From NCBI GenBank assembly GCA_013815325.1, contig JACDGM010000001.1, forward strand, positions 1 through 64,000: 64,000 nt of DNA. The letters run 5' to 3'. Both the position numbers and the translations under genes were made by a program. The stretch comes from Chthoniobacterales bacterium. Its GTDB lineage: Bacteria; Verrucomicrobiota; Verrucomicrobiia; Chthoniobacterales; UBA10450. The number at the start of each line of letters is the position of its first letter. Within the stretch, counting starts at the first letter, position 1. Below the pieces are notes generated by a model. The model saw nothing but the letters and a program-made list of their open reading frames with translations. It was not told the DNA's origin and did no database searches. Positions 663 through 62,715 of this stretch are shown piece by piece.

Positions 663-1277
663 ATGCTTCAAGCCGCTGATCTCCAACCGCTCACTCCAGC
701 GCTCACGGTTTGGCAGGCCTACGATCCGGCGGTGAAGGCTGATCTCTGTTCTACTTGTATCCGGCTGGAGAATCGTCTTTTTCTGGTCGATCCGATCCCG
801 CTTACGCCCGACGCGCTGCGCGAGTTGAGCGCCCGCGACAGCGTCTGCGCCGTCTTCGTGACAAACACGAATCACGCCCGTGCCGCGGGTTTCTTTGCCG
901 GGCAGAGCGGCGCGACCGTGCTCGCTTCAGCGACGACGGCGAACGCGCTGATCGATTTGGAAATCCTCTCGATCGCAGCTGGAGACCTCGTCGCCGATCA
1001 CATCGAAGTCATCGCGCTCGAAGGTGCGGCGGAGGGTGAGATCGCATTGCACTTGCGGAACGACGGCGGCTCGATCGTGCTCGGCGACGCACTCATCAAT
1101 TTCGAGCCTAACGGATTCACGCTTCTCCCAGCGAAGTATTGTTCGGACCAAAAATTGATGCGGCGCTCGCTGCGGCAGTTGCTCGATTTTTCCTTCGAAC
1201 GGCTCCTCTTTGCGCACGGCACCCCGATTGTTTCCTCCGCGCGGACGAAGCTGGAAGTGCTTTTAGCTGATCGTTAG
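663..1277 (+). CDS. MBL-fold (metallo-beta-lactamase-like) protein with degenerate metal site
   Basis: A 204-residue cytosolic protein. The central stretch FVTNTNHARAAGFF sits where a metallo-beta-lactamase fold carries HxHxDH, and later segments match the fold: GSIVLGDALINF (the D of the metal bridge) and LLFAHGTPI (the final His strand). Only single histidines survive in the first motif, so classical dinuclear zinc hydrolysis is doubtful. It lies 10 bases upstream of the prenyltransferase gene on the same strand, probably in one transcript. Its TAG stop lies inside a copy of the TCGTTAGG word. Substrate unknown; the fold assignment is from motif spacing only. Confidence 0.6.
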   Translation: MLQAADLQPLTPALTVWQAYDPAVKADLCSTCIRLENRLFLVDPIPLTPDALRELSARDSVCAVFVTNTNHARAAGFFAGQSGATVLASATTANALIDLEILSIAAGDLVADHIEVIALEGAAEGEIALHLRNDGGSIVLGDALINFEPNGFTLLPAKYCSDQKLMRRSLRQLLDFSFERLLFAHGTPIVSSARTKLEVLLADR

Positions 1278-1287
1278 GCGAGGTCTG

Positions 1288-2181
1288 ATGGAGTCGCTTT
1301 CCTCGCCGAACGGCCACAAAGGTCTCGATGCTCTGCCGCGTCGCGAAAACGGACTCGCCCGCTTCCTGCGCCTGATCCGCTTCTCGCACACGATTTTTGC
1401 GCTCCCTTTTGCCTTGGGCGCGTTGTTGGTGGCGACCCGAGGGCGGCCCCCGGCGCGACTCCTCGTCCTGGTTCTGCTCTGCATGGTTTGCGCGCGGACG
1501 GCGGCGATGCTTTTCAACCGCATTGTTGATTGGTCGCTCGATCGACGAAACCCGCGCACCGCGATGCGGCACGAGCTAATCTCGCGTCCCGCCGCAGTGC
1601 TGCTCCTGGTCTTGAGCGCACTTGCGTTTGTCGCCGCGGCGGGCGCGATTAATCGCTTGACCCTAATGCTGGCGCCTCTCGCGCTCGGCATCATCTTTTT
1701 CTATTCACTCACGAAACGTTTCACGGCCGCGAGTCATTTCTTTCTCGGTCTGGCGCTCGCCATCGCGCCGGCCGGGGCCTGGATTGCGGCGACCGGACGC
1801 CTCGCATTGCCTCCGCTGCTTCTCGGCGTCGGAGTGGTCGGTTGGGTGGCCGGGTTCGATTTGATTTACGCCACCCAGGATTTCGAATTCGATCGCAGTG
1901 AAGCGCTCTACTCACTGGTGGTGCGGCTCGGAATCGCGCGGGCGCTGCGGCTCGCGCAGTGGCTGCACTTGGGCATGTTTGCCGCGCTCATCGCTTTCGG
2001 CTTCGTGGCCTCGTTAGGCGTGATTTATTTTTGCGGTATGCCGCTGGTCGCCGCGGCCCTCTTTTACGAGCATCGCAGCGCCGCTCGGCTCAACCTCGCG
2101 GGTATCAATCGCGCGTTCTTCCAAAGCAACGCATTCGTCAGCGCGGTCTTTCTTGTGAGCGTGATTGCGGCTTTAGCCTAA
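1288..2181 (+). CDS. UbiA-family polyprenyltransferase (4-hydroxybenzoate/futalosine-pathway type)
   Basis: A 297-residue polytopic membrane protein with the two aspartate-rich UbiA signatures: NRIVDWSLDRRNPRT near residue 73 and DLIYATQDFEFDR near residue 190, with about eight hydrophobic helices between and after. The family transfers a polyprenyl chain onto an aromatic acceptor at the membrane. The second motif, with YATQD, resembles enzymes annotated as UbiA or MqnP, the latter in futalosine menaquinone synthesis. Which quinone is made cannot be decided without neighbouring quinone genes. The stop codon TAA lies inside a CCTAACGA word. Confidence 0.85.
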   Translation: MESLSSPNGHKGLDALPRRENGLARFLRLIRFSHTIFALPFALGALLVATRGRPPARLLVLVLLCMVCARTAAMLFNRIVDWSLDRRNPRTAMRHELISRPAAVLLLVLSALAFVAAAGAINRLTLMLAPLALGIIFFYSLTKRFTAASHFFLGLALAIAPAGAWIAATGRLALPPLLLGVGVVGWVAGFDLIYATQDFEFDRSEALYSLVVRLGIARALRLAQWLHLGMFAALIAFGFVASLGVIYFCGMPLVAAALFYEHRSAARLNLAGINRAFFQSNAFVSAVFLVSVIAALA

Positions 2182-2196
2182 CGAGAGTAAATCGGT

Positions 2197-2625
2197 TTAG
2201 AGTTCGAGCTGCGCGATACGGTTGGCGTGGCGCCCGCCCTCGAAATCGGTCGTCAGCCAGACGCGCACGATGTTCAACGCCATCTCTTCGCTGATCACCC
2301 GTTCGCCTAACGATAAGACGTTGGCGTCGTTATGCTGGCGCGAAAGTCTGGCGGTTTCTTCGTTCCAGCAGAGCGCGCAACGGATTCCGCGCACTTTGTT
2401 CGCGGCCATGGCTTCGCCGTTGCCGGAACCGCCGAGGACGATGCCGCGGTCGCACTCGCCCTTGGCGACGGCTTCGGCGGCTGGCCGGATAAACTTCGGA
2501 TAATCGACCGGATCCTCGCTGTCGGTGCCGAAATCCACGACTTCGTGGCCTAACGAGGGGAGCAGCTCCTTGATTTTTTCTTTGTAGCGATAACCGGCGT
2601 GATCGGAGCCGAGAGAAATTTTCAT
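2197..2625 (-). CDS. rpiB: Ribose-5-phosphate isomerase B
   Basis: A 142-residue protein starting MKISLGSDHAGY, the characteristic RpiB N-terminus. Other signatures are ECDRGIVLGGSGNGEAMAAN, with the active-site loop (usually Cys-Gly-Ser/Thr-Gly; here the Cys is Gly-Gly), NDANVLSLGERVI and FEGGRHANRI. It interconverts ribose 5-phosphate and ribulose 5-phosphate in the pentose phosphate pathway. The frame stays open upstream through the DnaJ gene, but the ATG at 2625 is the only start that fits the family length. The upstream space to the DnaJ-like stop holds a small hairpin repeat. The frequent catalytic Cys is replaced by Gly, as also occurs in other RpiB-fold isomerases. Confidence 0.93.
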   Translation of the reverse strand: MKISLGSDHAGYRYKEKIKELLPSLGHEVVDFGTDSEDPVDYPKFIRPAAEAVAKGECDRGIVLGGSGNGEAMAANKVRGIRCALCWNEETARLSRQHNDANVLSLGERVISEEMALNIVRVWLTTDFEGGRHANRIAQLEL

Positions 2626-3689: not shown

Positions 3690-3950
3690 GGAGGGAAAAA
3701 AAGCGCGAGCGCACATTGCGCCGGTTCCTCCGACTATTCCCGAAAGACCAGCGCCATTCCATCCCGGCCGTCAACCTAACGAGGCCGTCGATCGCCGCCT
3801 TCACCTCCTGCGCCATCGCCAGCACGATCTCGTTGAGCTGGCGCGAGCGCTCCTTCTGCTCTTGGATCAGCAGCTTGGATAACCGGTAAGGTCAAGGAAG
3901 AGCACATGCCCAATTTCGAGCCTCGGATTGTTCTCAGATTCGGGCGCCAT
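3690..3950 (-). pseudogene. Remnant of a class III adenylate cyclase gene (5' end only)
   Basis: From the ATG at 3950 the reverse strand reads MAPESENNPRLEIGHVLFLD, the usual start of a cyclase domain. A one-base deletion then breaks the frame just after LTGY. In the next frame KLLIQEQKERSRQLNEIVLA continues the domain, and after another shift DGMALVFRE appears, followed by TAG. Only about 85 codons of a domain normally near 180 residues remain, and the sequence runs into the DnaJ-like start. The same domain is also broken at 11.07 kb, so the two pieces bracket the TPR array. Confidence 0.75.
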
Positions 3951-5939: not shown

Positions 5940-7747
5940 CTGGCGGCCGAGGCGGTTCCTTTGGCTTGAGGGATTCGACGATCTTCTGAAAGCGCGGATC
6001 GCCCCGAATAGGATCCCAATGCGGGCTGAGGCGCAGGTCAGCCGTGGTCAGACTTTGGGCGGAAGGCTGAGTGAGGGCGTCCTGGATTAACGGTATCGCG
6101 TGATCGAAATCACCGAGCTGGACGTAACCAATCCCCGCCGCCGTTTCGGAGTTTGGGAACTCCCACTTATCCATTCTAGTCTTGGCAAACAGTTCCTGGA
6201 TTTCCTGTTCCACTTCAGCGCGATTCCCGAGGAGCGATTCCATCTCGATGTAAAAGCCATGGAGCTGCAAACTAATCGCGCCGTTTTGGCGCAGCTCTTT
6301 CCGGTCGCGCTCGGCGCGCTCAAGGTAAGGAAGGGCAGAAGCACGGTCGCCTTTCGCCAGATAGAGATTTGCCGCACCCGCGAGGACCAACGCCCGCAAC
6401 GGCGGGGGGAGGTGTTGCTCCTCTCTGGCAACGGCTAACCCTTGCGCCATCATCTCGTCGAGTTGTCCTCGTTTCGACAGCAGATCCATCAAAAGCCCGC
6501 CACCGTTATCGGCCGGTGAAATGTGCAGCTTGCTGACCATTCCCCACGCCGTGTCGATGTCGCCCTGAGCCAGATAGGTTTCCGCCTTCACGCAGATGAT
6601 TGCAGGATCGTTAGGCGCAATGGTAAGGGCGCGATCGAACATGGCGCGCGCTTCCTCAAATCGGCGTAACCCGCGCTAGGTATTCCCTAGATTCACCAGG
6701 ATGTCTTGATTCAACGGATCGAGGACTGCAGCTTGCTGCATCCCGCTAAGGCTATCGTCGAACTTTCCCTGGCGGCGTTGCACCAAGGCAATCAAGTATG
6801 CGATCCCGCCGTTGTTAGGCGCGCCTTCCTGCGCGGCTCTTAACTCGGCGATGGCCGCGTCGTAATCGCGCAGACAGTAATAATTAAAAACGCCCTTGGC
6901 CATTTGCTATCCGCCAGCTCGGGCGCGAGCCGCAGCGCCGTCTCGACGGCCTTGCGCGCGCGCTCCTTCTCCGCCCCGATTGCGTCGTTGAAATAATCCA
7001 AGGCCTCGGCCTGACTCAGGAGCGCCCAGGCTTGCGCATAGTTCGAATCGAGCTGGACCGCGCGTTGCAGAAACGCTTTCTGTTTCTCGGATCCTTCTTT
7101 ACTCTGCGCGCCGCGTAAGGCCAGCGCGTGCAGAAAAGCATCGTAAGCTTCCGGGGTTTTCGTCCCAACGAAACCTATTTCCTTCCTTTCACGCCCTGTT
7201 AGCTTGGCTTCGAGCGATTCGGCGATTTTCTGCGCGACGTCGCTTTCCACACCGAAGATGTTGCTCATGGTGCGGTCGTAGGTATCGGCCCAGAGATGGT
7301 CGTCCTTCAGCGCATTAATTAGCTGCACGGTGATGCGCACCTCATCACCGGCTTTCTGCACACTGCCGTCCAGAATATTAGTGACACCAAGTTGCTGCGC
7401 TATCTCGCGCAAGTTTGCCGGCGCGCTCTTATATTTCTGGGTGGACGTGCGCGAGATGACCTTCAAGTCCGCGATCTTGGAAAGACGCGCCAGGATTTGA
7501 TCCTAAATGCCGTCGGCGAAGTAGGCGTTGTTCTTATCTTCGCTCAGACTCTCGAACGGCAATACTGCAATCGATTTGTTATCGGAGGTCGTCGTTCCGA
7601 ATTCATTCGCAGGACTCTGCCTGCTCGACGCGGTATAGCGTCCGAGAAAGAACAAGCCAGCCAACAAGGCCCCCGCGATTAACACCACATAAATCCACGC
7701 CCGGCCTTGTAAACGTTGCGCCGTCTCAGCTCGGCGAAGAAGTTCGT
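5940..7747 (-). pseudogene. Decayed TolB/FlgO-like TPR protein, copy C
   Basis: The 5' end reads NFFAELRRRNVYKA and jumps straight to GRAWIYVVLIAGALLAG: the first membrane pair has been deleted. The domain SIAVLPFESLSEDKNNAYFA follows, then an in-frame TAG where relatives have Gln (GI-stop-DQIL, near 7504). The frame continues through LKVISRTSTQKYKSAP to LAPELADS, breaks near 6905, resumes as AKGVFNYYCLRDYDAAIAEL, and meets a second in-frame TAG near 6677. The rest is open to about 5950 and ends as PRFQKIVESLKPKEPPRPPD before running into copy D. At least two nonsense codons, one frameshift and one deletion make it a clear pseudogene. Confidence 0.83.
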
Positions 7748-11065: not shown

Positions 11066-11370
11066 TTACGCGATGTTTATCCCAGCGCCGGCGATGTTGG
11101 CGCGTTCGTTCACGTCGGCCACTTCGCTCACTGGCCCGCTGTGGATTCCGATCCGCAGCTGGAGTTGCGGGCGATTTTTTGCCGCCTCCGAAATTTCCAG
11201 CGCGCACAGCGCAGGTGCTTCCAGGTTTTCTCGAAAGACCAGGGCCATGCCGTCGACGTTGGGCAGCCGAATCAATCCTCCCGCTTTCAGATCAAGTTTG
11301 TGGTCGTTAGGCATGCTGCATTTTGGTCGCGCCATCTCTTTGACCATTTCGCTCCGGCGCAGGCGATTTC
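11066..11370 (-). pseudogene. Remnant of a class III adenylate cyclase gene (middle part)
   Basis: In the reverse frame, LIRLPNVDGMALVFRENLEA, PALCALEISEAAKNRPQL, RIGIHSGPV and ANIAGAGINIA give the central and C-terminal core of a class III cyclase domain, including the usual RIGIHSG strand. The 5' third and the end after GINIA are missing, and the stop at 11066 sits 13 bases before the start of TPR copy A. In related genomes cyclase and TolB-TPR modules occur side by side, so this is the upstream partner of copy A in decayed form. Confidence 0.75.
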
Positions 11371-11902: not shown

Positions 11903-12141
11903 CTCTAAACTCTAACGGTGTTCATTACAAAAGGGCGAAATGCCGGGTCACTTCCTTCGGAGCTGGACCAGCTTGCCACAGGACGAAGCGGATCGCATCT
12001 CCATCCTTACAATTGGCCGCCGCCTAACGAAGAATCGGTCTGGCAAAGAGATGGCAGTACGTCCGCTTGGAAAGTAACAGGCCCGTAACTTTTCCCGATT
12101 CGCCTTTGCAACCTCTCCCGGCGAAATGACTGCCACCAAAT

Positions 12142-17792: not shown

Positions 17793-17816
17793 GTTACTCG
17801 TTAGGCCAATCACCAG

Positions 17817-29000: not shown

Positions 29001-29009
29001 GAATGCGCC

Positions 29010-37582: not shown

Positions 37583-37610
37583 GCAGACGCTTTTCGTTAG
37601 GCTATGCGAA

Positions 37611-48226: not shown

Positions 48227-48455
48227 GTAGAATTTATTCGCGTTACAGCGGCCTGGAGGATTTGCCGGAAAACATTTTCAACTGGATGAATTGGTCGATT
48301 AGTCGAAAAGCGCCGCGACAAATTGACAATCAAGGCGTCGAATCCGGTGGCGTTTTTCTCACTCCTTGCCCGTTCGATACATTTGGAATGTCGCGAGATC
48401 CGGTGGCATTCGAGCCAAGCCACCACCGCAGGAAGCGCGGCGGCGAGCGCCGGAA

Positions 48456-48962: not shown

Positions 48963-48972
48963 TCGGGTGAAC

Positions 48973-50964: not shown

Positions 50965-50966
50965 TA

Positions 50967-52505: not shown

Positions 52506-52509
52506 AGCG

Positions 52510-53965
52510 GATGATTTCCAGGGATGCGGCCAGCCGGTTCCGCCAGCCGCGTCCGTACGCCGTGCGAAGATATGCGTCGAACAGTTCCACGTCGCCGTTC
52601 TGCGGCTCGTCGAAATGCCGGTGCGACTTGCCGCGCCGGACGCTGGTTACCTTGGGGTCGTCATCTCAAGCAAACCCTCGGCGCCACGCGTTGTGCCGAA
52701 GCCGCTGCGGCCGCGTCCGCCAAACGGTAGGCGCGGATCGGCGGTGGGAACGATGAGGTCGTTGATGACGACAACGCCGGCGCGAACCTTTCCCGCGAAA
52801 CTGTGTGCAGCGGCCGCGTCGCGACTGAAAATCGCTGCGCCTAACGCGTAGGGGCATTGCAACGAGAACGCGAGCGCCTCCGCGTCATTAGCAACCGGAA
52901 TAAGTGAAAGGACCGGCGCAAAAATATCTTCGCAGGCGATCCGCATCGATGATGCTACCGCGCTTAAAATAATTGGAACGGAAAGAAGCTGGCCATCAGA
53001 TTGGATGCTTCCCTTGACGAAATCCGCGCCCGCCACCAAAGCGTCGGTCACGCACCCAAGGCGACGCGGATCGAGGATCAACGAAGTTTCGAAGATGGCC
53101 GCGCGCAGGCGCGTCTCAAGTTCTGAGACGAGGTCACGGTTCACAAAAACGCGTCGGGGTGCAATGCAGGTCGCGCCGTTGTTCAGGCGGAGTCCAAACC
53201 GAAGCGCGCGCACGACCAAATCGAGGTCAGCATCGGCGCGCACAAAGACGGCGTCACAGCCCGATAGCTCGATCGTTGTCGGCGTCAGCGTTTTCGCGCA
53301 CTGCGCCAGCACCGCTTGGCCCGTGCTCGCGCTGCCAGTCAGAATAACTTTGTCGATGCCGAGTTCGATCGCGGATTGGGCAGCGATCGCCTCTTCCGAA
53401 AGCACGTGAGCAAGATTTTGCGGCAAGCCTGCTCGATGCAAAATTTCGACAAACGCTTGCGCAGCGCGCGATCCGTTGTCGCCTGGTTTGATGAGAACTG
53501 CATTGCGGGCGACGAGCGCCTGGAGGGTCTGAACGGCCGGCAAAAAGAGCGGGTAGTTTCCTGGAGCGATGATGAGAATCAGACCGTGCGGCTCGCGCTG
53601 GATTTCGCTGTGAACGCCGCTAAGCCAGAGGGGGCGCCGCCGCCATCCGAGTCGCCGTCCTCGCAAGATGCGCCCGCTTTCGTCCTCAAGAAATCGGCAC
53701 GCGGCCGCGAGCGGAACGACTTCCGACGTCAGGATTTCAGCCGTCGGACGCTGCCGAAAGTGATTGGCGGCTTCAGTGAGCGATGCTGCTTCTTCGACAA
53801 TGAGCAACCGGGCGCGCCGGATGATTTTTAGTCGCTGCGACAGAGCGCATTCCGTCCAGCCGCATTGTGCGTTCGCGCTGATGCGATCGCCCGCTGAACG
53901 TTCACGAGCATGGAATTCGCATTTGCTTCTTCTTCCGAAATCAAGAATGGAACGACTACGTTCAT
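52510..53965 (-). pseudogene. Carotenoid aldehyde dehydrogenase-like gene (CrtNc type), two frameshifts
   Basis: The start at 53965 (MNVVVPFLISEEEANANSML) meets a frame change near 53870. The second frame then runs RLKIIRRARLLIVEEAASLT, PHGLILIIAPGNYPLFLPAV, VILTGSASTGQAVLAQ, catalytic-loop equivalent NNGATCIAPRRVFV (Cys nucleophile) and LPFGGRGRSGFGTTRGAEGL to TAA at 52647. Shifting one base in the CCCC run (52654-52657) restores a natural tail, KVTSVRRGKSHRHFDEPQNG then DVELFDAYLRTAYGRGW. Relatives oxidise diapolycopene aldehydes to acids. The body of the enzyme is intact, so sequence error is a real possibility. Confidence 0.78.
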
Positions 53966-55516
53966 GCGAAGGTTGGCTGGGAGTTCTTTTCGGTCCGTTG
54001 AGTCGACGGCGCATTTGCGCTTTCTTGCCAGTCCACATCGAAGCCGAAATCTTCAAGCAACAGACGCGAACTGATCCGCGCGCTCTCGAAGATTACCGGT
54101 AACCCGCTGCCTGGATGCGTTCCGCCGCCGACGACATAGACACCGTTCAAATCTTCGAATCGATTGTGCGGCCGGAGATGCAACATCTGGTCAAGGGTGT
54201 GGGCCAGATTAAAGGTGGCCCCACGATAGACTTCGTAACGCGTGTCCCAATCCGCCGGCGTAATCACACGCTCGTACCGTATGCGCGATTCGACACCTCT
54301 GAATCCTAACTTCGCAATCTGTTTCAACATCAGGTCGCGAAACGCACTCCGCTCTTTGGACCAGTCCACATTTGAATGTTGGTGCGTAACCGGAGCGAGA
54401 ATGTAGAGCGCGCTATGTCCGCGCGGCGCGAGAGTCGAGTCGGTCGCGCTGGCATTCTGGACATAAAATGACGGGTCGCTGCTTAACACATGCCGGTTCT
54501 CGATTTCATCGAGGTTTCGCTCGTAATTTTCCGAGATGTGAATGTTATGATGCGGCAGGTCGTAGCGGCCTTCGATCCCGAGATACATCATGAAAGTCGA
54601 GCAGGAGTACTTTTTTCCAGCCAGCTTCCGATCGGTCCAACGTCGCCGCAGTTTGTCCGGAACCAGCTTCTGCATGGCGCGGGCAAAATCGGCGTTCACC
54701 ACTACTGCGTCTGCCTTGTAAGTTTGGCTGCCGGTGCGAATTCCGGTGGCCCTGCGACCGGCAAAAAGAATCTCTTCCCACCGGTTCGTTTAGGTGAATC
54801 TCAACGCCCTGCCGGTGCGCGACACGTGCCATCGCGGCGGTGATGGCCCCGCAACCGCCGATCGGATGCCAAACGCCGTGCTCGTACTCGAGAAAGCTCA
54901 GGATACTGAACAAGCTCGGACAGCGGAAAGGCGACATGCCAAGATATTTCGACTGGAAACAAAACGCGAGCCGCACGCGCTCGTCGCTGAAGAAACGCTT
55001 TAGGTAAGTGTCGAGTGATTGGTGCGGCCGCAGCATCGGGAGCATTCGCAAGAGGCGTTTATTGAATACACTTCGCCAGCCCTCAAATGACGTCTCCAGA
55101 CACGGCTCCATCAACGCGAGTTTGGCGCGGTTTTCGAAGAGAAAACGGTGAAACCCTGGAGCGTCATGCGGCGACAGCGCGGAAATTTGCGCTTCCATCC
55201 GCGCAACGTCCGGTGTGCAATCCATTTCTCCGCCACCACCGAATTGGACTCGATACTGTGGATCGAGCCGCACGAGCTCAATCTCTTCGCGAAGTTCCGC
55301 GCCGGCGACGCGGAAAATTTCCTCAAGCACCCGCGGGTAGAGGAAGAAGGTGGGACCAAGGTCGAACTTGTAACCGTCGGCCTCGATGCTCGAGGTGCGT
55401 CCGCCAACAATCGGCAGACGCTCGATGATCTTTACCTTCACTCCCTGGCTTGCTAGCAGAATTGCGGAGGCGAGGCCGCCCGGGCCGGCGCCGATGATGA
55501 GGATCTGTTTCGCCAT
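53962..55516 (-). pseudogene. CrtI-family carotenoid desaturase 2 (CrtN-like), one frameshift
   Basis: From the ATG at 55516 (MAKQILIIGAGPGGLASAIL): FAD motif, RTSSIEADGYKFDLGPTFFL, FCFQSKYLGMSPFRCPSLFS and VWHPIGGCGAITAAMARVAH. After LNEPV an extra C in CCC at 54777-54779 shifts the frame. The next frame gives EEILFAGRRATGIRTGSQTY, NADFARAMQKLVPDKLRRRW, FMMYLGIEGRYDLPHHNIHI and VYVVGGGTHPGSGLPVIFES. About 518 residues when repaired. The sequence resembles diapophytoene desaturases. No phytoene or diapophytoene synthase is present in the window. Confidence 0.82.
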
Positions 55517-55524
55517 GGCACCAG

Positions 55525-55734
55525 CTAAAATCTGGTCCGGATGCCGCACGCCCGGAGCGCGCACCAACCGCGCAGCGCCTCAAAAAGGACGAACGCTCCG
55601 CCCAGAAACAAAACAACGCTCAGGATGAAATGGGGGCGCAGGTAGAGCGCACCGCCGATGAACAGGGGCACCGACGCGACGCCGCGGAGCCAACGGCCCG
55701 TGGTGTTAAGTTTGCTGCGAAGGCGACGCTCGAT
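55525..55734 (-). CDS. DUF2892-like small membrane protein (start unclear)
   Basis: The reverse frame reads SKLNTTGRWLRGVASVPLFI, then YLRPHFILSVVLFLGGAFVL and FEALRGWCALRACGIRTRF before TAG at 55525. Two hydrophobic helices and the RGWCALRACG end are typical of DUF2892 (YgaP-like transmembrane) proteins. No ATG precedes it: the frame opens just after TAA at 55735, and an internal GTG at 55671 would give 48 residues. Either a rare start, that GTG, or a 5' frameshift. It lies nine bases upstream of the CrtN-like gene. Confidence 0.55.
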   Translation of the reverse strand: MERRLRSKLNTTGRWLRGVASVPLFIGGALYLRPHFILSVVLFLGGAFVLFEALRGWCALRACGIRTRF

Positions 55735-55775
55735 TTAAGCGGTCGAGCCGAACCGCAGAATGGCTCGCGCATCGA

Positions 55776-55952
55776 TCAGGCGTGATTGATTTGCGTCGCG
55801 ATGACTGGGGGTGGCACGAACACGCTCTGAGCGGCCGGTGAAACAAAAACCTCGTAATCCCGGTTCACGAGGAACCAGAGGGTTACGCCGACGATTAAGC
55901 TGGCGAACGCCGCTATCAGAAAAGGACGATCAACTTTTGTGAACATAGACAT
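55776..55952 (-). CDS. 58-residue single-pass membrane protein leading the carotenoid operon
   Basis: ATG at 55952 (MSMFTKVDRPFLIAAFASLI) to TGA at 55776. One transmembrane helix (LIAAFASLIVGVTLWFLV) is followed by a short external tail rich in Val, Ser and Pro (VFVPPPVIATQINHA). It is the first gene on the minus strand from the divergent promoter shared with the CarH-type regulator and probably the first gene of the carotenoid transcript. The start region ATGTCTATG resembles one of the putative operator words. Function unknown. Confidence 0.6.
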   Translation of the reverse strand: MSMFTKVDRPFLIAAFASLIVGVTLWFLVNRDYEVFVSPAAQSVFVPPPVIATQINHA

Positions 55953-56002
55953 TTGGGTTGGCGACGGTTTGAAATCGAACGACCGTCGGTGTTTCGAAAT
56001 AG

Positions 56003-56024
56003 TTTGTCAACTATTTGTCTATGT
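56003..56024 (+). promoter_or_regulatory. Candidate CarH operator, two 11-bp direct repeats (pair 1)
   Basis: TTTGTCAACTA and TTTGTCTATGT follow each other with an 11-base period. CarH-type regulators are known to bind tandem 11-bp repeats, one per helix-turn-helix. The pair lies in the spacer between the small-protein/carotenoid operon and the regulator gene. The match to a known CarH box is only general (TGTC-TA instead of TGTACA), so this is a proposal. Confidence 0.45.
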
Positions 56025-56102
56025 TTTTTAGTGCCTACTTCCATTATTCTCCTTGCTATGCCTTTTATGATCCGGCGAAGATAATTGAAAACTATTTTGC
56101 AT

Positions 56103-56124
56103 TCTGTCTATGTCATGTCTACAT
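56103..56124 (+). promoter_or_regulatory. Candidate CarH operator, two 11-bp direct repeats (pair 2)
   Basis: TCTGTCTATGT and CATGTCTACAT are again spaced 11 bases and share TGTCTAyrT with pair 1. The pair ends 13 bases before the regulator's ATG at 56138, a position suited to autorepression. A single related word in reverse (ACATAGACAT, 55943-55952) overlaps the start of the divergent small gene. Confidence 0.45.
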
Positions 56125-56137
56125 TTCTAACCCAAGG

Positions 56138-57103
56138 ATGAAACAAGTCGATAACCCCATCCGCGTTGCGTCGGCGCGGAGCGGACTTTCTACACACGCG
56201 ATTAGGGTTTGGGAGAGGCGTTACGGCGCAGTCAAACCGAAGCGCACCGGCACGAATCGCCGCCTTTACTCAGACGTTGAGATCGAGCGTCTGACTCTCC
56301 TTCGGCTGGCGACTGCTTCCGGACACAGCATCGGAAATATCGCCACGCTCCCGCTCGCGAAGCTGAAATCGCTTGTCAGCGAAGCCGAGCCTGAAGGACG
56401 CCGCGCACGGCCAGGCTCCCCGGCGCAGAGTTTTCATGATGCTTGCCTCCAGGCGGTGAAGGCGCTCGATGATCGCCAGTTAGGAGAACAACTGCAGCGC
56501 GCGCTCGTCGCTCTCGGTCAGCAGGGATTACTTCGGCAGCTGGTGGCGCCGCTCGCCCAGAGAACTGGGGAACTTTGGCGTGCCGGTGTCATCACCGCTG
56601 CGCATGAACATTTTCTAACCGCGGCTTTGAAAGTCTTTCTGGGGAACGTTGCGGGGCAGTTTGCGTCTTCACCGATTGCACCTGCCATCGTGATCGCTAC
56701 GCCGGCGGGACAGCTTCACGAACTTGGCGCAGTCATTATCAATGCTGCCGCCGCGCAGCTCGGATGGCGTACTACCTATCTCGGCGCCAGTCTCCCAGCG
56801 GCAGAGATCGCCGGTGCCGCCATCCAAAGCAAGGCCGTCGCGGTAGCACTCAGCATAGTGTATCCCGAAGATGATCCCCATCTCCCTCACGAACTGATCA
56901 GCTTGAAGCATTTTCTTCCGGCAGAGGTCAAGATCCTGAGCGGTGGCCGAGCTGCAGCCGCGTACAGCGAAATACTGACCCGCATCGAAGCGATCCAGCC
57001 CACGGATCTCGATGCCTTCTCGCTGCAGCTCGACGCACTCCGCAAGGCGGCGAGTGGCCGCGAGGTCGGGGTCAATACGCCTTTTCTATCCCGAACTATC
57101 TGA
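56138..57103 (+). CDS. carH: CarH/LitR-type MerR regulator with B12-binding photosensor domain
   Basis: 321 residues from the ATG at 56138 (MKQVDNPIRVASARSGLSTH). The MerR helix-turn-helix has HAIRVWERRYGAVKPKRTGT. A four-helix cap carries the adenosylcobalamin motif W-x9-EH in LWRAGVITAAHEHFLTAALK. The Rossmann B12 domain keeps the His ligand in GQLHELGAVIINAAAAQLGW, Ser/Val in ALSIVYPEDDP and GG in ILSGGRAA. The family binds AdoB12 in the dark as a tetramer, represses carotenoid genes, and is released by light. It is divergent from the carotenoid cluster, as expected. A longer frame from 56015 has no support. Confidence 0.92.
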   Translation: MKQVDNPIRVASARSGLSTHAIRVWERRYGAVKPKRTGTNRRLYSDVEIERLTLLRLATASGHSIGNIATLPLAKLKSLVSEAEPEGRRARPGSPAQSFHDACLQAVKALDDRQLGEQLQRALVALGQQGLLRQLVAPLAQRTGELWRAGVITAAHEHFLTAALKVFLGNVAGQFASSPIAPAIVIATPAGQLHELGAVIINAAAAQLGWRTTYLGASLPAAEIAGAAIQSKAVAVALSIVYPEDDPHLPHELISLKHFLPAEVKILSGGRAAAAYSEILTRIEAIQPTDLDAFSLQLDALRKAASGREVGVNTPFLSRTI

Positions 57104-57255
57104 ACGGGTCCAGGCGTCTGCCGCCATTGTTTCGCGCCGCTCTGCACGGAAGCGGACGTTGCCGGATGAACCTGCAAATCAATGGACATGTTATGACTTT
57201 CGGCACACGGCTTATGACCGAAGGCATTTTCTCCCTCGTGACCAATAGGGAAAAG

Positions 57256-57326
57256 AGCGGGTGAGGGGAATCGAACCCCCGTATGCAGCTTGGGAAGCTG
57301 CCGTTCTGCCATTGAACTACACCCGC
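57256..57326 (-). tRNA. tRNA-Gly (anticodon CCC)
   Basis: The reverse strand folds as a full cloverleaf. Acceptor GCGGGTG pairs with CACCCGC; D arm GTTC-AATGGCA-GAAC; anticodon arm GCAGC-TTCCCAA-GCTGC with anticodon CCC; variable loop ATAC; T arm GGGGG-TTCGATT-CCCCT; discriminator T. It reads GGG glycine codons. The 3' end points toward the carotenoid cluster, the side on which islands usually integrate. CCA is not encoded. Confidence 0.96.
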
Positions 57327-57369
57327 GGGGTGAGCTGAGAGCTTATAGTTGAGAGTTGAGAGACCGCAA

Positions 57370-57984
57370 CTACTGCCAGGAAATCACGTCGTCGTCTGCA
57401 GTGCCTGTATTCTTGCCCGACGGAGTTGCCGATGAGCTGCCATCCTTGCCAAAGGACCACGCGATCACTCCTAATTGGAGAGGCGCGGCCCCGGCGTCTT
57501 GTGAATAGGGATTGGCAACTTGATTGTTATAGTCGGCATCTATCCGGACGACATAATTCTGGCCCCACGGATCAAAAAACTGCCCGGTTCCCGTAGTGGT
57601 TCCAATACCTGATCGCGGGCTGGCGCTGTCCTTCACGTCAGGCGGTGAAATGAAAACGATTTGACGAGGATTCAACGTTGGTATGGCTTCGACACCGCGC
57701 AAAGGGTCGAAAAGTGTTTGGTTCGTGGTCGGGCTACCTCCCGGTCCCAAAGTCGTTTCGACCGTCGCCGCGGTCGGATACTTGCCGTACTCGGTATAAA
57801 ACGCATTCACCGCCGTCACGATCTGCGTCACGTCGTTCTTCGCCTGCGTCCGTTTCGCCTGATCCTGGACGCCTTTGAAGGCCGGGAAGAGAAGCGCGAT
57901 TAAGATCGCTATGATCGTGATGACAACCAGCAGCTCGATCAATGTGAAAGCGCTCTGGGGTTTTGGATTTCCTCTCACGTCCAT
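57370..57984 (-). CDS. Type II secretion-like pseudopilin (GspG-like)
   Basis: 204 residues from the ATG at 57984 (MDVRGNPKPQSAFTLIELLV), which gives a short leader, a prepilin peptidase site before FTLIELLVVITIIAILIALL and the conserved Glu5. The C-terminal domain has KRTQAKNDVTQIVTAVNAFY, YTEYGKYPTAATVETTLGPG and a FFDPWGQNYVVRIDADYNNQ segment characteristic of GspG-like major pseudopilins. The frame is open further upstream, but the N-methylation signal fixes the start. It slightly overlaps the 3' end of the DUF2851 gene. Solitary pseudopilins of this type are abundant in Verrucomicrobia. Confidence 0.88.
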   Translation of the reverse strand: MDVRGNPKPQSAFTLIELLVVITIIAILIALLFPAFKGVQDQAKRTQAKNDVTQIVTAVNAFYTEYGKYPTAATVETTLGPGGSPTTNQTLFDPLRGVEAIPTLNPRQIVFISPPDVKDSASPRSGIGTTTGTGQFFDPWGQNYVVRIDADYNNQVANPYSQDAGAAPLQLGVIAWSFGKDGSSSATPSGKNTGTADDDVISWQ

Positions 57985-59342
57985 TTTTGCATCTGCTCGG
58001 GGAAAGGACATTGCGCGCAGTCGGAGTTGTCTTGCAAGCAAAAGTCCTCGTAGATCTGGAGGAGACCCTGCTGCTGCGCCACGGTCTTGAGAAAGCTCGC
58101 CCGGCGCGGGTCGTCCCCGAAGAGTCGCGCGGCGCCGGTTTCCAATCGGCGGTTCGTTAGGCGGGCGGGTAGTTTTTGATAGTCCGGCCAGACTTCGCGC
58201 CCTTGCGCCTGGCGCAACGGGAGGACGACGTTCGCCAGAATTTCGGTGGCGCGCGTCTCACCGATGAGCGCCATTTCGGCGGCGGCCGGAGCCGAGGTGA
58301 GGGTGTAATGAAAGTTCCAATAGGGATGCGCGCAGGAGAGTAAAAAATCGCGCGTCGCCTTGAGATCGTCTTTGCCTAACGACCGCAGGAATTGCGGCCA
58401 ATCCGCGGCCAGGGCGGCGAGAGCAGCGAGCCGGCGCTGCGGATGATTGAGCGGCCGCGTTCCACTCAATCGCCAGGTGCGCGGCGGCAGGACGAGACGC
58501 TCCAGCTCGCTCCGGCGCGGCCACCATTTATCCCAGAGAGCGCGCAGATAACTCCGCGTGGCGGCCTCGAACTGCGCCAGGTCCGGCGCAGCAAGGAAAC
58601 CGCCGACGCCAAAGAGGGTGGCTTCGATCTCGTTAGGCAAAGCTCGCAGCACCTTCAGAGGTAGCCGCTGCGCGAGCAGGGTGAAGGGCAATTTGTTCTG
58701 TTTGTAACCGAGCGCGGTGGCCAGTTCCTGGAAGAGCGCTTCGTCGCGACCGTGCAATTCGGCGAGGCGCCCGAGCCGTTGCGCTTTCCGGGCGAGCCGG
58801 AATTGCGCGGCCGCGTCGAGAATATTTCGCACCTTTTCCTCCGGCAGATCGCGCAGCGGCGCCTGACAGCGACCCGGTCGCGCAAGCGGAAGATTCGCCG
58901 CCAGTCCGGCGGGCAACGTCGCGGGATCGACCTGCACTTGCGGCACGTTGCGTTGCGCGCTCGTCCGGCTGAAGAACGCGCGCGGCCCCGCCTCCACGAA
59001 AACGTGAAGGACAGTGTCATCGAAGGCGGGATTGGTAGCGTGCCCGTGGGCTTCCCAATTTTGGTCCGCGAGATCGAACTCGATGCTTCCCCTTACGATC
59101 TCGCTGTGGCCGATGCGAATCGCGGCGTCGGAAAAATCCGGCCCGGCGGCGCGGTTCCAGGTGCCGAATTGCACGATCTCGACCTCCTCGCCTGCGGTGC
59201 TCGTGAAGCTGCGGCCGAAGTCGCCCGCAAACCAGCGCGCCTGTAATTCCAGCTCGCTGAAATGACGCGGAAGGAGCAGGAGCGGGCGCTCACGAATTCG
59301 AGCGGTTGCCAGCAACTGCGCATAACGCTCTGCGCTAGACAT
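57975..59342 (-). CDS. DUF2851 family protein
   Basis: A 455-residue protein with the DUF2851 pattern: FAGDFGRSFTSTAGEEVEIV, GTWNRAAGPDFSDAAIRIGH, GSIEFDLADQNWEAHGHATN, VLHVFVEAGPRAFF and the C-terminal Cys cluster FCLQDNSDCAQCPFPEQMQK. The GPDF-D-A-I-EFH-type core suggests a nuclease-like fold, but no activity is known. Six iterated words resume here: 58154, 58375 and 58640 lie within it after the motif-free carotenoid region. Confidence 0.85.
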   Translation of the reverse strand: MSSAERYAQLLATARIRERPLLLLPRHFSELELQARWFAGDFGRSFTSTAGEEVEIVQFGTWNRAAGPDFSDAAIRIGHSEIVRGSIEFDLADQNWEAHGHATNPAFDDTVLHVFVEAGPRAFFSRTSAQRNVPQVQVDPATLPAGLAANLPLARPGRCQAPLRDLPEEKVRNILDAAAQFRLARKAQRLGRLAELHGRDEALFQELATALGYKQNKLPFTLLAQRLPLKVLRALPNEIEATLFGVGGFLAAPDLAQFEAATRSYLRALWDKWWPRRSELERLVLPPRTWRLSGTRPLNHPQRRLAALAALAADWPQFLRSLGKDDLKATRDFLLSCAHPYWNFHYTLTSAPAAAEMALIGETRATEILANVVLPLRQAQGREVWPDYQKLPARLTNRRLETGAARLFGDDPRRASFLKTVAQQQGLLQIYEDFCLQDNSDCAQCPFPEQMQKWT

Positions 59343-60030: not shown

Positions 60031-61452
60031 CTACTTTTCGTTAGCCGCGCGCAAGGCCACGCCCAGATCCTGTACGAAAAGCGCATACTCTCGCGCGCGT
60101 GATTCCTCGTCGGGCTGGCGCAACAGTGACGACGGATGGACCGTCGTCACTACCCGCGGTGCCAAGGCTGATTCCAGCACCCGCCCGCGCTCGCGCGTGA
60201 CGCGGAAAGACGGCCCAAAGAGCGCTTGCGCCGCCGTCGAGCCGAGACAGACGAGGACGCTTGGCCTAACGATTCGCAGTTCCGCTTCGAACCAGGGGCG
60301 ACAGGCGGCGATGTCGCGCGAGCTCGGTTTCTGGTGGATGCGGCGTTTCCCGCGCGGTTCCCATTTAAAATGCTTCACCGTGTTCGTCACGTAAACGTCG
60401 GCGCGGTCGATCCCGGCCTCTTCGAGCGCGCGATCGAGCAACTTGCCCGCCGGACCGATGAACGGTTTGCCGCTGAGATCTTCCTGGTCGCCCGGTTGTT
60501 CGCCGAGGAGCATGAGCGTCGCGCGTTTCGGGCCTTCGCCGAAGACTGTCTGCGTGGCATTTTTATAAAGGGGGCAGGCGGTGCAGCCACGCGACGCTCC
60601 GCGCACGGTCGTTAGGCTGGAGGTCTCCGGAACGGGCGCGGGATACCACTCCCCGTCCATTGCGGCTTTTTTTGCTGCGCTTTTTTCCATCATCATCTCC
60701 ACCCTCCGCGGCGCCTCGTGCAGGAGCGACGGAATGAGCGTCGCCTCCGGCAGATTACGCCAGTATTTCTTCGGCATCTCCGCCTGCATCGCGTGCACTT
60801 TCACGCGCGCCGGGTTGAAAATATTCGCATAATACGTGCGCCACAGCTCCTCCATCTGGTCCGCGCCGGGGGCATCCGATCGCGGAACGCCAGCGGTAAA
60901 TGAGAGCGTTTTGCCGTTCCAGTGCGCACAACGATCCGGCGTCAGGATCGACCAGCGCATCGAGGCGAAGCGATCGGCGAAGAAGGGCGCGTTCTGCTCC
61001 ACGATGTGATGCTGCGGTTCGAACCAGGCGACGAACCATTTTTCCCCGCCATGCTCGACTTCCCGAAACCGCACGAAGGCCCGCATTTTGTGGATGTCCT
61101 GCCTAACGGATTTCTCGAAATCGCCCGCCTGGGCGACGTCGGAATCAACCGCAATCTCAAGCAGGTGCGTTTCGCCGTGAGTCAGCCGCCAGAGGAGCCG
61201 ATAAAGGAGCGGCCAGCGGCCTGCTTCGCGATGGAGCGAAACGAGTTTGGCGAGCGCGAGAAAGCGTTTCGGTACGCGGAACTTCGATGGCGGCGTCGAC
61301 GCAGGATCGGCCTCTTCGAAAAGATAGAGCGCCGGCTGGTCCTCGCCGATTTCCTCCCACACGATCTGACCAGGCTCGATCGCGTTCTGCAGCGCGCGGC
61401 GCGCCGCGGCCTGCCAGCGCTCGAAAGTGGGCAGGAATGAAATTTGTTCCAC
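60031..61452 (-). CDS. udgX: UdgX-type uracil-DNA glycosylase fused to DUF4130
   Basis: A 473-residue protein. Residues 1-250 form a DUF4130-like domain (FRVPKRFLALAKLVSLHREA, WFVAWFEPQHHIVEQNAPFF, LWRTYYANIFNPARVKVHAM). The C-terminal half is a family 4-like Fe-S uracil-DNA glycosylase: GCTACPLYKNATQTVFGEGP, MLLGEQPGDQEDLSGKPFIG, NTVKHFKWEPRGKRRIHQKP and VHPSSLLRQPDEE. The RRIHQKP loop is the UdgX hallmark; its His links covalently to uracil-containing DNA in characterised UdgX. It follows a radical SAM gene by only six bases, the usual pair. Confidence 0.95.
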   Translation of the reverse strand: MEQISFLPTFERWQAAARRALQNAIEPGQIVWEEIGEDQPALYLFEEADPASTPPSKFRVPKRFLALAKLVSLHREAGRWPLLYRLLWRLTHGETHLLEIAVDSDVAQAGDFEKSVRQDIHKMRAFVRFREVEHGGEKWFVAWFEPQHHIVEQNAPFFADRFASMRWSILTPDRCAHWNGKTLSFTAGVPRSDAPGADQMEELWRTYYANIFNPARVKVHAMQAEMPKKYWRNLPEATLIPSLLHEAPRRVEMMMEKSAAKKAAMDGEWYPAPVPETSSLTTVRGASRGCTACPLYKNATQTVFGEGPKRATLMLLGEQPGDQEDLSGKPFIGPAGKLLDRALEEAGIDRADVYVTNTVKHFKWEPRGKRRIHQKPSSRDIAACRPWFEAELRIVRPSVLVCLGSTAAQALFGPSFRVTRERGRVLESALAPRVVTTVHPSSLLRQPDEESRAREYALFVQDLGVALRAANEK

Positions 61453-61458
61453 GCGGTC

Positions 61459-62715
61459 CTAGAATTGACCGCTAACGACCGAGGGCTCGTTCGCGAAGAG
61501 GTCGAGTTGCTTTGGCCTAACGATTAACGATGAGAGCAGGTCGTCGCGCTCGAGACTGCGCGTCTCTGCATTGGAGCCGATGGCGATCACGAAAGGGAGA
61601 AGTTTTTTCAGCGGCAGATGCAGGCGCACCAGATCCTCCAGCCGCAGTTTATGCCAGCGGCGGATCCGCAGGATGCGCTCTACGTTTTTCGTCCCGAGCC
61701 CAGGAACACGAAGGAGCAAATGGCGCGGTGCCTTGTTTAAATCGACTGGGAACAGCTGCCGATGGCGCAGCGCCCAAGCCAGTTTCGGGTCGATTGTCAG
61801 GTCAAGATTCGGGGCCGCTTCCGTCGTCAGCTCATGCGCGGCAAAGCCGTAAAAGCGCACCAGCCAATCCGCCTGATAGAGCCGATGCTCGCGCACGAGC
61901 GGCGGCGCCTGCAGCGGCAGCTTGTTCGACGCATCGGGAATTGGACTGAAGGCCGAATAGTAAACGCGCCGCAATTTCTGTCGCGCGTAGAGCGAGGAAG
62001 CCTGCCGCAAAATCGTCGCGTCCGAAGCGTCGGTCGCGCCGACGATCATTTGCGTGCTTTGGCCCGCGGGCGCGAAGGCGGGCGCTTTGCGTGATTGCTT
62101 GCGTTCCGCTTTTGCTTCATCAATCCGCGTCTTGATGCCGCTCATCGCCCGTTCGGTGTTCTGGAAATTTTTCTCCGGCGCGAGCGTCTGCAAGGCCGCG
62201 GGGGTTGGAAGCTCGATGTTGATGCTGATCCGGTCCGCCCAGCGGCCCGCTTCCTCGATTAAAGCAGGCGACGCTTCCGGAATCGTTTTGAGATGGATGT
62301 AGCCGCGAAACTCGTGCTCGACGCGCAGCGTCCGCGCCACCTGTATCACCTGCTCCATTGTGTAGTCGGGGTTACGAATGATCCCCGAACTGAGAAAGAG
62401 GCCTCCAATGTAATTGCGCCGGTAAAAGTCGAGCGTCAGTTGCACCACTTCCTCAGGGGTGAAGCGGGCGCGCTGCACATTGCTCGAGACGCGGTTGATA
62501 CAATAGAGGCAATCGTAAATGCAGAAATTCGTGAGCAGAATTTTCAGGAGCGAGACACACCGGCCGTCCGGCGTGTAGCTGTGACAAATGCCGGTGCTGG
62601 TGGTGGAACCGATGCCGCTCGAATTGCGAGAATTGCGCGCCGTCGTTCCGCTGCTCGCACAGGAAGCGTCATACTTCGCGGCGTCGGCGAGGATGGCGAG
62701 TTTGCGGTGGAGTTC
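61459..62715 (-). CDS. Putative DNA modification/repair radical SAM protein (UdgX partner); start defective
   Basis: About 418 residues. The frame opens after TAG near 62730, with no ATG or GTG before the motifs: ELHRKLAILADAAKYDASCA, GICHSYTPDGRCVSLLKILL and the radical SAM cluster NFCIYDCLYC (CxxxCxxC). Then ARFTPEEVVQLTLDFYRRNY, RGYIHLKTIPEASPALIEEA, MIVGATDASDATILRQASSL, VYYSAFSPIPDASN and a helix-hairpin-helix LLLRVPGLGTKNVERILRI. An out-of-frame ATG at 62717 directly before ELHRK suggests that one base (ATG-G) is missing. The family always accompanies UdgX and is presumed to act in DNA repair. Confidence 0.82.
   Translation of the reverse strand, partial: ELHRKLAILADAAKYDASCASSGTTARNSRNSSGIGSTTSTGICHSYTPDGRCVSLLKILLTNFCIYDCLYCINRVSSNVQRARFTPEEVVQLTLDFYRRNYIGGLFLSSGIIRNPDYTMEQVIQVARTLRVEHEFRGYIHLKTIPEASPALIEEAGRWADRISINIELPTPAALQTLAPEKNFQNTERAMSGIKTRIDEAKAERKQSRKAPAFAPAGQSTQMIVGATDASDATILRQASSLYARQKLRRVYYSAFSPIPDASNKLPLQAPPLVREHRLYQADWLVRFYGFAAHELTTEAAPNLDLTIDPKLAWALRHRQLFPVDLNKAPRHLLLRVPGLGTKNVERILRIRRWHKLRLEDLVRLHLPLKKLLPFVIAIGSNAETRSLERDDLLSSLIVRPKQLDLFANEPSVVSGQF

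What the first reader, a model, noticed from the sequence alone, without database searches (positions are those of the whole stretch)
1271..61523. A non-palindromic word, GCCTAACGA / TCGTTAGGC, iterated about 70 times in 64 kb
Scanning both orientations by eye I find 38 exact CCTAACGA and 32 exact TCGTTAGG; about 2 in total are expected by chance for an 8-mer counted on both strands of 64 kb. In 56 of the 70 the core is preceded by G on the CCTAACGA strand. Copies occur within genes, in spacers and on stop codons, in both orientations, so it is neither a gene-family motif nor a transposon end. The behaviour is that of DNA uptake sequences (Neisseria, Pasteurellaceae), of Chi-like words, or of a methylation/binding label. 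I know of no description of this word for such a genome. The GspF and pseudopilin genes in the window show only that pilus-like machinery exists.
Basis: partly seen in the sequence, partly recalled or inferred. Interest (0 to 1): 0.95.

Follow-up and report, generated by a model that had tools for sequence, protein, structure and literature searches.

The report
Likely DNA-uptake word in a verrucomicrobium
A nine-letter DNA word is repeated about once per thousand bases, on both strands, across the genome of this Verrucomicrobiota bacterium, and half or more of the copies checked sit at the same places in sister species; it is likely a self-label that a predicted DNA-uptake machine would recognise so that DNA of relatives is taken in, a trick that the reviews consulted report from only two other bacterial families.

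Summary
CCTAACGA occurs 70 times in the window (shuffles: mean 0.9) and 3430 times in the 4.15-Mb genome (letters reversed: 162). It has no strand polarity, sits in genes in every frame that avoids a stop, occupies rare codons, and is kept at the same sites in sister species at 76-79% DNA identity (26 of 33, 18 of 34, 10 of 19, 5 of 10; matched 8-mers 14-19%). In the genomes searched it is strong only in one family of Verrucomicrobiota. A second, unrelated word, AAGATCGACA (up to 4653 copies), marks one clade of that family; one genome, G014, carries both. The first word looks ancestral: relics in some genera, nearly erased where the second is used. ComEC, DprA, PilT and pilins are present. 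The pattern matches the uptake words of Neisseriaceae and Pasteurellaceae and does not fit Chi/KOPS, attC, HIP1 or codon readings. Uptake is untested, no receptor was identified, and ComEA is not clear in this genome. If right, this is the first uptake word outside two families of Pseudomonadota, with a dialect change in progress.

The parts
1271..1278 (-). word A core CCTAACGA, over the stop of gene 663-1277
2011..2018 (-). word A
2177..2184 (+). word A, over the stop of UbiA gene 1288-2181
2306..2313 (+). word A
2549..2556 (+). word A
3775..3782 (+). word A
6608..6615 (-). word A
10801..10808 (-). word A
11304..11311 (-). word A
12023..12030 (+). word A
12247..12254 (-). word A
13647..13654 (-). 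word A
16791..16798 (-). word A
17048..17055 (+). word A
17798..17805 (-). word A
18551..18558 (+). word A
18776..18783 (+). word A
19326..19333 (-). word A
20151..20158 (+). word A, inside threonyl-tRNA-synthetase-like gene
21220..21227 (+). word A, same gene
22252..22259 (+). word A, inside recQ-like gene
22757..22764 (+). word A, inside recQ-like gene
23231..23238 (+). word A, inside recQ-like gene
23593..23600 (+). word A, inside recQ-like gene
24064..24071 (+). word A, inside recQ-like gene
25039..25046 (-). word A
25694..25701 (+). word A
26330..26337 (+). word A
27162..27169 (+). word A
27382..27389 (+). word A, over the stop of gene 25626-27386
28315..28322 (+). word A
29009..29016 (+). 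word A, over the stop of gene 29010-30152(-)
29283..29290 (+). word A
29441..29448 (-). word A
29710..29717 (-). word A
29929..29936 (-). word A
31568..31575 (+). word A, over the stop of gene 30766-31572
32657..32664 (+). word A
33047..33054 (+). word A
35243..35250 (+). word A
36849..36856 (-). word A
37499..37506 (+). word A
37594..37601 (-). word A
39594..39601 (-). word A
40186..40193 (-). word A
40712..40719 (-). word A
40831..40838 (+). word A
41017..41024 (+). word A, over the stop of gene 41018-41923(-)
41364..41371 (-). word A
41541..41548 (+). word A
41846..41853 (+). word A
42640..42647 (-). word A
43136..43143 (-). word A
43767..43774 (+). word A
44689..44696 (+). word A
44839..44846 (-). 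word A
45077..45084 (-). word A
45311..45318 (-). word A
45672..45679 (+). word A
45946..45953 (-). word A
46095..46102 (+). word A
46322..46329 (-). word A
46684..46691 (-). word A
46912..46919 (-). word A, last copy before the word-free stretch
46920..58153 (.). word-free stretch (carotenoid-type gene cluster next to tRNA-Gly), possibly acquired DNA; acquisition not shown
   Evidence: P about 1e-4 for so long a gap in 20,000 random placements
58154..58161 (-). word A
58375..58382 (+). word A
58630..58637 (-). word A
60265..60272 (+). word A
60609..60616 (-). word A
61516..61523 (+). word A
2..664 (-). T2SSF/PilC-like gene (cut by the window edge); pilus-type machinery, link to the word not shown
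57370..58041 (-). prepilin-like gene (N_methyl), link to the word not shown

Best explanation
GCCTAACGA is a DNA-level label, repeated about once per kilobase in both orientations across this Verrucomicrobiota genome and kept at half or more of the same sites in sister species, and it is likely a DNA uptake word that a predicted pilus-borne receptor would bind so that DNA of relatives is taken up preferentially. Shown: density, orientation, use of all stop-free frames, use of rare codons, conservation at homologous sites, strong enrichment in one family only among the genomes searched, a second unrelated word in one clade of that family, and genes for ComEC, DprA, PilT and pilins. Inferred: a type IV pilus carries a minor pilin that binds the word (CTAAC strict, flanks tolerant); bound DNA is pulled in by retraction and passed to ComEC; DprA would load it for recombination; biased uptake followed by recombination spreads the word through the genome (molecular drive), so the word tracks receptor specificity. 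Inferred too: the receptor changed specificity in one branch of the family, so that AAGATCGACA replaced GCCTAACGA there, and G014, which holds both, stands between the two states.
For: Genome-wide 3430 copies against 162 reversed; strongest 8-mer in 396 kb. No strand polarity: heterogeneity p 0.20-0.85 in five sets, G-rich/C-rich strand 155/148 (segments with fewer than 4 copies, and for the second figure those with little skew, left out). In 396 kb, genes called by my own simple script: 298 of 370 in genes, 52 between genes (14.1%; 14.6% of the DNA is between genes), 19 over stops, 1 over a start; the four stop-free frame/orientation classes hold 77, 93, 64 and 64. Of all CTA, TTA and AGG codons in the sample, 93 of 458, 64 of 488 and 64 of 386 lie inside the word. 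Kept at the same sites at 76-79% identity: 26/33, 18/34, 10/19, 5/10, and 4/6 in another genus at 75%; matched 8-mers 13-19%. Similar mismatch tolerance in G000 and in G014, a different genus. Second word AAGATCGACA: 4653 in G014, 147-1509 in the other 15 genomes of genera g5, g6, g9, g12-g14, 11-85 in the remaining 21 of the family, 1-21 in 21 genomes of other families; 13 of those 16 genomes, from all seven genera, are on a ComEC tree and form one clade, 100/100. Of second-word copies in aligned DNA, 9 of 11 in G016 and 11 of 16 in G009 sit at G014 sites. ComEC 53/58 genomes, DprA 13/13, PilT family 19/19. The only word-free stretch over 4.2 kb between copies in the window is a carotenoid-type cluster beside a tRNA gene.
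Against: No uptake experiment. No receptor: of 19 multi-member pilin groups in 7 genomes none is present in all four first-word genomes and absent from the two second-word-only ones (a few listed pilin hits were not fetched); the basic tandem PilA-like pilins occur in word-poor genomes too. An over-threshold ComEA-type HHH_3 domain was not found in G000, G005, G016, G009, G010 or G022 (G000 has two weak hits). ComEC, DprA and PilT are equally present in genomes without either word, so they show only that uptake is possible. Few close inverted, terminator-like copies as in Neisseria. Conservation is not unique to the word: in the G004 comparison 9 of 333 other 8-mers, in G003 1 of 84, are kept as well or better. 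Seen from G014, only 9 of 53 second-word copies are kept in G016 and 11 of 27 in G009 (matched 10-mers 8-9%). Preference for genome-maintenance genes was not tested.
Confidence: 0.74

Rival explanations
1. A binding or modification label not tied to uptake: a chromosome-organising, repair or defence protein (or a methyltransferase) recognises the word and needs it at high density.
For: Site conservation, use of rare codons and frame independence fit any DNA-level function. Methylation and protein binding were not measured, and methyltransferase genes were not surveyed.
Against: Restriction-modification sites are as a rule avoided, not enriched (recalled). Unrelated words in sister genera, with both in one genome, recall uptake dialects; for a nucleoid protein this would be unusual (judgement). 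The density resembles uptake words: PMC7811141 (passages) gives a spacing of about 1,000 bp.
Confidence: 0.18
2. A recombination or segregation signal of the Chi or KOPS kind.
For: Short, non-palindromic, genome-wide.
Against: No polarity with strand or GC skew: 155 against 148 in G000; 65/59 (first word) and 120/101 (second word) in G014. Both known kinds are strand-biased (recalled).
Confidence: 0.03
3. Scattered integron attC sites or another mobile element: GCCTAAC/GTTAGGC equals the usual outer box of attC (recalled).
For: In G038, of another family, six copies lie in one orientation about 410-640 bp apart, as in a cassette array; no integrase was looked for.
Against: In G000 only 17 of 370 copies (4.6%) have an attC-like partner, against 7.4% at random places; the flanks carry only a few weakly preferred letters.
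Confidence: 0.02
4. Mutational or codon-usage by-product without function.
For: A Markov model of order 6 leaves almost no excess (70 against 65), though it is built from fragments of the word itself.
Against: Kept about three to four and a half times more often than matched 8-mers at homologous sites in four congeners, in all open frames, in codons that the genome otherwise avoids.
Confidence: 0.02

Closest known systems
DNA uptake sequence (DUS) of Neisseriaceae and its dialects
   Same: Non-palindromic word, hundreds to thousands of copies, both strands, in and between genes; dialects in sister taxa (PMC5031613, passages; PMC2346458, part 1 of 3 read); T4P and ComEC present here.
   Different: Other phylum; word unrelated to ATGCCGTCTGAA; copies not arranged as inverted pairs; no ComP identified; two unrelated words co-occur in one genome.
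Uptake signal sequence (USS) of Pasteurellaceae
   Same: About one copy per kb; evolves by point mutation at homologous sites (for USS: PMC7811141, passages); two word types in one family (PMC2346458).
   Different: Words unrelated to AAGTGCGGT and ACAAGCGGT; weak flanks for the first word; other phylum.
HIP1 of cyanobacteria (recalled)
   Same: Extreme genome-wide enrichment of a short word, function uncertain.
   Different: HIP1 is palindromic; these words are not.
Chi / KOPS (recalled)
   Same: Short non-palindromic word read by a DNA-handling machine.
   Different: Those are strand-polarised; here polarity was tested and absent.

Membership tests
DNA uptake sequence (DUS/USS) | Short non-palindromic word at about one per kb, genome-wide | tested here: met
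   3430 in 4.15 Mb; 0.93/kb in the 396-kb sample
DNA uptake sequence (DUS/USS) | Both orientations, no replication-strand bias | tested here: met
   (GC skew as stand-in for the replication strand; draft genome)
DNA uptake sequence (DUS/USS) | Found in genes irrespective of frame as well as between genes | tested here: met
DNA uptake sequence (DUS/USS) | Single-base evolution at conserved homologous sites, not insertion | tested here: met
   kept 50-79% in four congeners; where lost, 1-2 mismatches in 24 of 30 sites in G001, G002 and G004 but in only 1 of 7 in G003; sites with gaps were not counted
DNA uptake sequence (DUS/USS) | Competence machinery (T4P, ComEC, DprA) | tested here: met
DNA uptake sequence (DUS/USS) | ComEA-type periplasmic receptor | tested here: inconclusive
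   over threshold in G001, G003, G004, G007, G014; only weak hits in G000; none in G005 (drafts, 92-94% complete)
DNA uptake sequence (DUS/USS) | Cognate DNA-binding minor pilin (ComP; PpdA proposed) | tested here: inconclusive
   many pilins, none tracks the word by presence
DNA uptake sequence (DUS/USS) | Scarce in recently acquired DNA | tested here: inconclusive
   one 11.2-kb word-free cluster; acquisition itself not shown; other word-poor stretches (L169 5 in 20 kb, L185 and L186 none in 4.4 kb each) not examined for origin
DNA uptake sequence (DUS/USS) | Preferential uptake or transformation by word-bearing DNA | not testable with these tools
   needs experiment
DNA uptake sequence (DUS/USS) | Bias to genome-maintenance genes | not tested
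Chi / KOPS | Strand polarity | tested here: not met
Integron attC | Paired R''/R' boxes, tandem same-orientation arrays | tested here: not met
   17 of 370 with partner, below random
HIP1-type word | Palindrome | tested here: not met
   sequence of both words
Methylation label | Modified base in the word | not testable with these tools
   no long-read signal data

The most novel reading that the evidence does not exclude
A whole bacterial family in Verrucomicrobiota has its own uptake language: GCCTAACGA is ancestral, AAGATCGACA was invented in one branch, and the genome G014 keeps both, a dialect switch caught midway, with the old word surviving as relics in genera that stopped maintaining it and all but wiped out where the new one reigns.
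Probability: 0.42. Interest if true: 0.95.

Novelty: new variant of a known kind. Interest (0 to 1): 0.88.

Why it matters
Reviews and papers state that sequence-specific DNA uptake is known in two families, Pasteurellaceae and Neisseriaceae (PMC5031613, PMC7811141; passages read), and PMC7811141 suggests that it may matter most in respiratory and other mucosal habitats. A third, independent case in another phylum would show that uptake words are a general outcome of biased uptake plus recombination, and would point to natural transformation in a group that one search found almost only as metagenome-assembled genomes. Having the old word, both words and the new word in sister genera makes the open question of how a population changes its uptake specificity directly testable: the receptor should be a gene that changes on those branches.

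Tried and rejected
Order-6 Markov null: absorbs the word in its own 7-mers; not informative. Chi/KOPS polarity: absent. Terminator pairs: few close inverted copies. attC: below random. Gene-family or codon motif: excluded by use of all open frames. PilA-like tandem pilins as the receptor: present in word-poor genomes, no match at E 1e-10 in the four g5 genomes that carry the second word; not supported. GspH/FimT-like minor pilin: single copy in all 7 genomes, globular pI 7.9 in G000, not telling. Pilin presence/absence profile: pilins picked by my own pattern from fetched stretches; hits at G022:C24, G023:C13 and G014:C7 were not fetched; no group fits; two groups (types L300 and L296) are in some first-word genomes but not in G000. 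ComEA profile: imperfect. Conversion of the first word into another fixed word in G016: 37 different octamers at 37 aligned sites, so erasure, not conversion. Order of branching of G014: ComEC has it outside the other 12 second-word rows with support 76/90, eight concatenated proteins put it with G016 at 40/56; unresolved. ComEC tree: midpoint root, very long branch of G044; 28 of 37 genomes of the family, genus g4 not represented. No structure prediction, protein-database search or methyltransferase survey was run. Papers: searches; none of six spellings of the words occurs as a whole word in the held library, and the only paper holding both 'uptake sequence' and 'Verrucomicrobi' is PMC6777429, on detecting horizontal transfer in metagenomes, seen in the search listing only. 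The library holds open-licence papers only. Read: PMC2346458 part 1 of 3; passages of PMC12616744, PMC5031613 and PMC7811141.
Full report
OBSERVATION. The window holds 70 exact CCTAACGA/TCGTTAGG, 38 and 32 on the two strands; 100 shuffles give a mean of 0.9 and at most 3. 56 of 70 have G in front. The whole genome (4.15 Mb, 209 contigs, 94% complete) has 1811 + 1619; the same letters read backwards give 162. In 396 kb of it (window plus 20 stretches) CCTAACGA is the most over-represented 8-mer and GCCTAACGA the most over-represented 9-mer under an order-3 model (370 against 13.4; 300 against 4.9).

ANATOMY. The logo beyond the core is weak: G at -1 (81%), T or C at -3 (74%). The mismatch spectrum shows which letters matter: within CTAAC most single changes are near or below chance (the largest are 10 against 3.1 and 11 against 6.6), while C for G at the first place (43 against 2.1), A for G at the eighth (27 against 2.4) and G for A at the ninth (32 against 3.7) are enriched; G014, of another genus, shows a similar tolerance. 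Copies lie in genes in proportion to coding DNA (298 of 370 in genes, 52 between; 14.6% of the sample is between genes), 19 over stops and 1 over a start; genes were called by my own simple script. All four frame/orientation classes without an internal stop are used (77, 93, 64, 64). The word forces rare codons: 93 of 458 CTA, 64 of 488 TTA and 64 of 386 AGG codons of the sample lie inside it. It has no strand polarity, few close inverted pairs and no attC partner (17 of 370, 4.6%; 7.4% at random places).

WHO. The closest named threonyl-tRNA synthetases belong to Spartobacteria / Chthoniobacterales assemblies of Verrucomicrobiota. A genome of the same genus, G004, is palsa_1392: its contig C23 and record PNAA01000057.1 have equal length and are identical over the 14,523 bases held. 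Among 58 relatives, the genus (5 genomes) has 1795-5493 copies of CCTAACGA, genus g2 2672 and genus g11 (G014) 2254; the other 30 genomes of the family have 97-771, two of them (G016, G026) below their reversed control; 21 genomes of other families have 3-86, all below their reversed control. Among 387 genomes of the phylum, three of them of this family, only G000 and G014 are high for the 9-mer (2754, 1802); next come three genomes of one genus with 61-133 and G428 with 59, mildly above their reversed controls.

KEPT IN PLACE. In DNA aligned to sister species at 76-79% identity, the word is kept at 26 of 33 (G003), 18 of 34 (G004), 10 of 19 (G001) and 5 of 10 (G002) sites, and at 4 of 6 in genus g2 at 75%; 8-mers of equal G+C are kept at 13-19%. 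Against single 8-mers the word is near the top, not alone: 9 of 333 do as well or better in G004, 1 of 84 in G003. Where it is lost, 24 of 30 sites in G001, G002 and G004 show one or two changed letters, but 6 of 7 in G003 three to five; sites with gaps were not counted.

A SECOND WORD. Counting all k-mers in relatives turned up AAGATCGACA in G014 (244 in 160 kb, 1.9-3.8 expected). Whole-genome counts: G014 4653; the other 15 genomes of genera g5, g6, g9, g12, g13 and g14 147-1509; the remaining 21 genomes of the family 11-85; other families 1-21; reversed control 0-8. It too has no polarity in G014 and is used in five of the six open frames, hardly in the sixth (2 of 278). In a tree of ComEC the 13 second-word genomes that could be placed (of 16; all seven genera) form one clade, 100/100. 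Of second-word copies in aligned G016 and G009 DNA, 9 of 11 and 11 of 16 stand at G014 sites; seen from G014, 9 of 53 and 11 of 27 are kept; matched 10-mers are kept at 8-9%. Small samples: G012 2 of 3 at G014 sites, G015 0 of 2, G023 2 of 2, G008 and G017 no copies in aligned DNA.

HISTORY OF THE FIRST WORD. Copies in G014 share sites with the window's genus (9 of 24, 8 of 18, 5 of 19; about 9% expected), although G016 and G009, which share its ComEC clade, keep 0 of 35 and 0 of 14. Over all seven second-word genomes sampled, 2 of 64 are kept (one each in G012 and G017). Genus g7, with few copies, keeps only 2 of 29 of G014's sites, but 14 of its 20 aligned copies stand at sites of the window's genus (control 11%; a site may be counted once per genome compared); with g3 it is 1 of 2; between the window's genus and G016 0 of 80 are kept (control 10%). 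At erased sites G016 shows 37 different octamers in 37 alignments, so the word decayed and was not converted. The simplest reading: the first word is ancestral in the family, survives as relics in some genera, is nearly gone from those that use the second, and coexists with it in G014. Whether G014 branches first in its clade is unresolved.

MACHINERY. ComEC is found in 53 of 58 relatives, DprA in 13 of 13 tested, the PilT family in 19 of 19 (five copies in G000), and 16 places in G000 match the prepilin motif at E up to 1, 11 of them over the cut-off. Since these genes are equally present where neither word is enriched, they allow uptake but do not prove it. A ComEA-type domain is over threshold in G001, G003, G004, G007, G014 and two outgroups, but not in G000, G005, G016, G009, G010 and G022. 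Pilins from seven genomes fall into 19 groups of two or more and 20 singletons; no group has the distribution expected of a word-specific receptor.

MECHANISM. In the two known families, DNA is bound at the cell surface by a pilus machine; in Neisseria the binder is the minor pilin ComP, and PpdA is proposed for Pasteurellaceae (PMC12616744, passages; PMC7811141, passages). Biased uptake plus recombination is thought to spread the word, which evolves by point mutation (PMC7811141, passages). The computed features that bear on that scheme fit it: density, both strands, frame independence, maintenance against codon preference, strict core with tolerant flanks, family-bound dialects, and replacement of one word by another. 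The missing receptor and the unclear ComEA do not yet fit. The receptor and the act of uptake are inferred.

WORD-FREE STRETCH. No copy lies between 46919 and 58154 (so long a gap came up in about 1 of 10,000 random placements, 20,000 trials). It covers two amine-oxidase/desaturase-like genes, an aldehyde dehydrogenase, an acyltransferase and a MerR/B12-type regulator, in the manner of a carotenoid cluster, and a tRNA-Gly gene near its right end. That would suit DNA acquired without the word; an empty site was not looked for. Other word-poor stretches exist (L169, 5 in 20 kb; L185 and L186, none in 4.4 kb each) and were not examined for origin.

VERDICT. Confirmed, genome-wide, strong in one family only among the genomes searched, and under DNA-level maintenance. 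Most likely a third, independent system of uptake words, the first outside Pseudomonadota, with two words in one family. Uptake remains to be shown.

Noticed in passing
window 24299-24390: Intergenic REP-like inverted repeat (TGTCATTCTGAGCG... / ...CGGGATGACA); 39 of the 44 BLAST matches listed for G003 fall on it; it does not contain the word.
   Followed up: partly
window 46920-58153: Carotenoid-type gene cluster with MerR/B12 regulator next to tRNA-Gly (57255-57326), free of the word; may be acquired.
   Followed up: partly
window 60031-61452 (-): Fusion of DUF4130 and uracil-DNA-glycosylase domains, next to a gene with a weak helix-hairpin-helix match.
   Followed up: no
L335 8047-10651 (G038, another family): Six GCCTAACGA in one orientation about 410-640 bp apart: looks like an integron cassette array, where the word would be the attC outer box.
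   Followed up: partly
L187, L188, L192, L193, L196, L198, L199, L202: Tandem pair of short PilA-like pilin genes side by side in these eight loci of the family; function unknown.
   Followed up: partly
L143-L146 (G022): AACGTCCAAC/GTTGGACGTT, 12 in 80 kb with 0.14 expected: a further enriched word or repeat in genus g7.
   Followed up: no
L337-L340 (G242): Mild enrichment of CCTAACCAA and GCCTAACAA (5 each in 80 kb) in a genus of another family; possibly integron-related.
   Followed up: no
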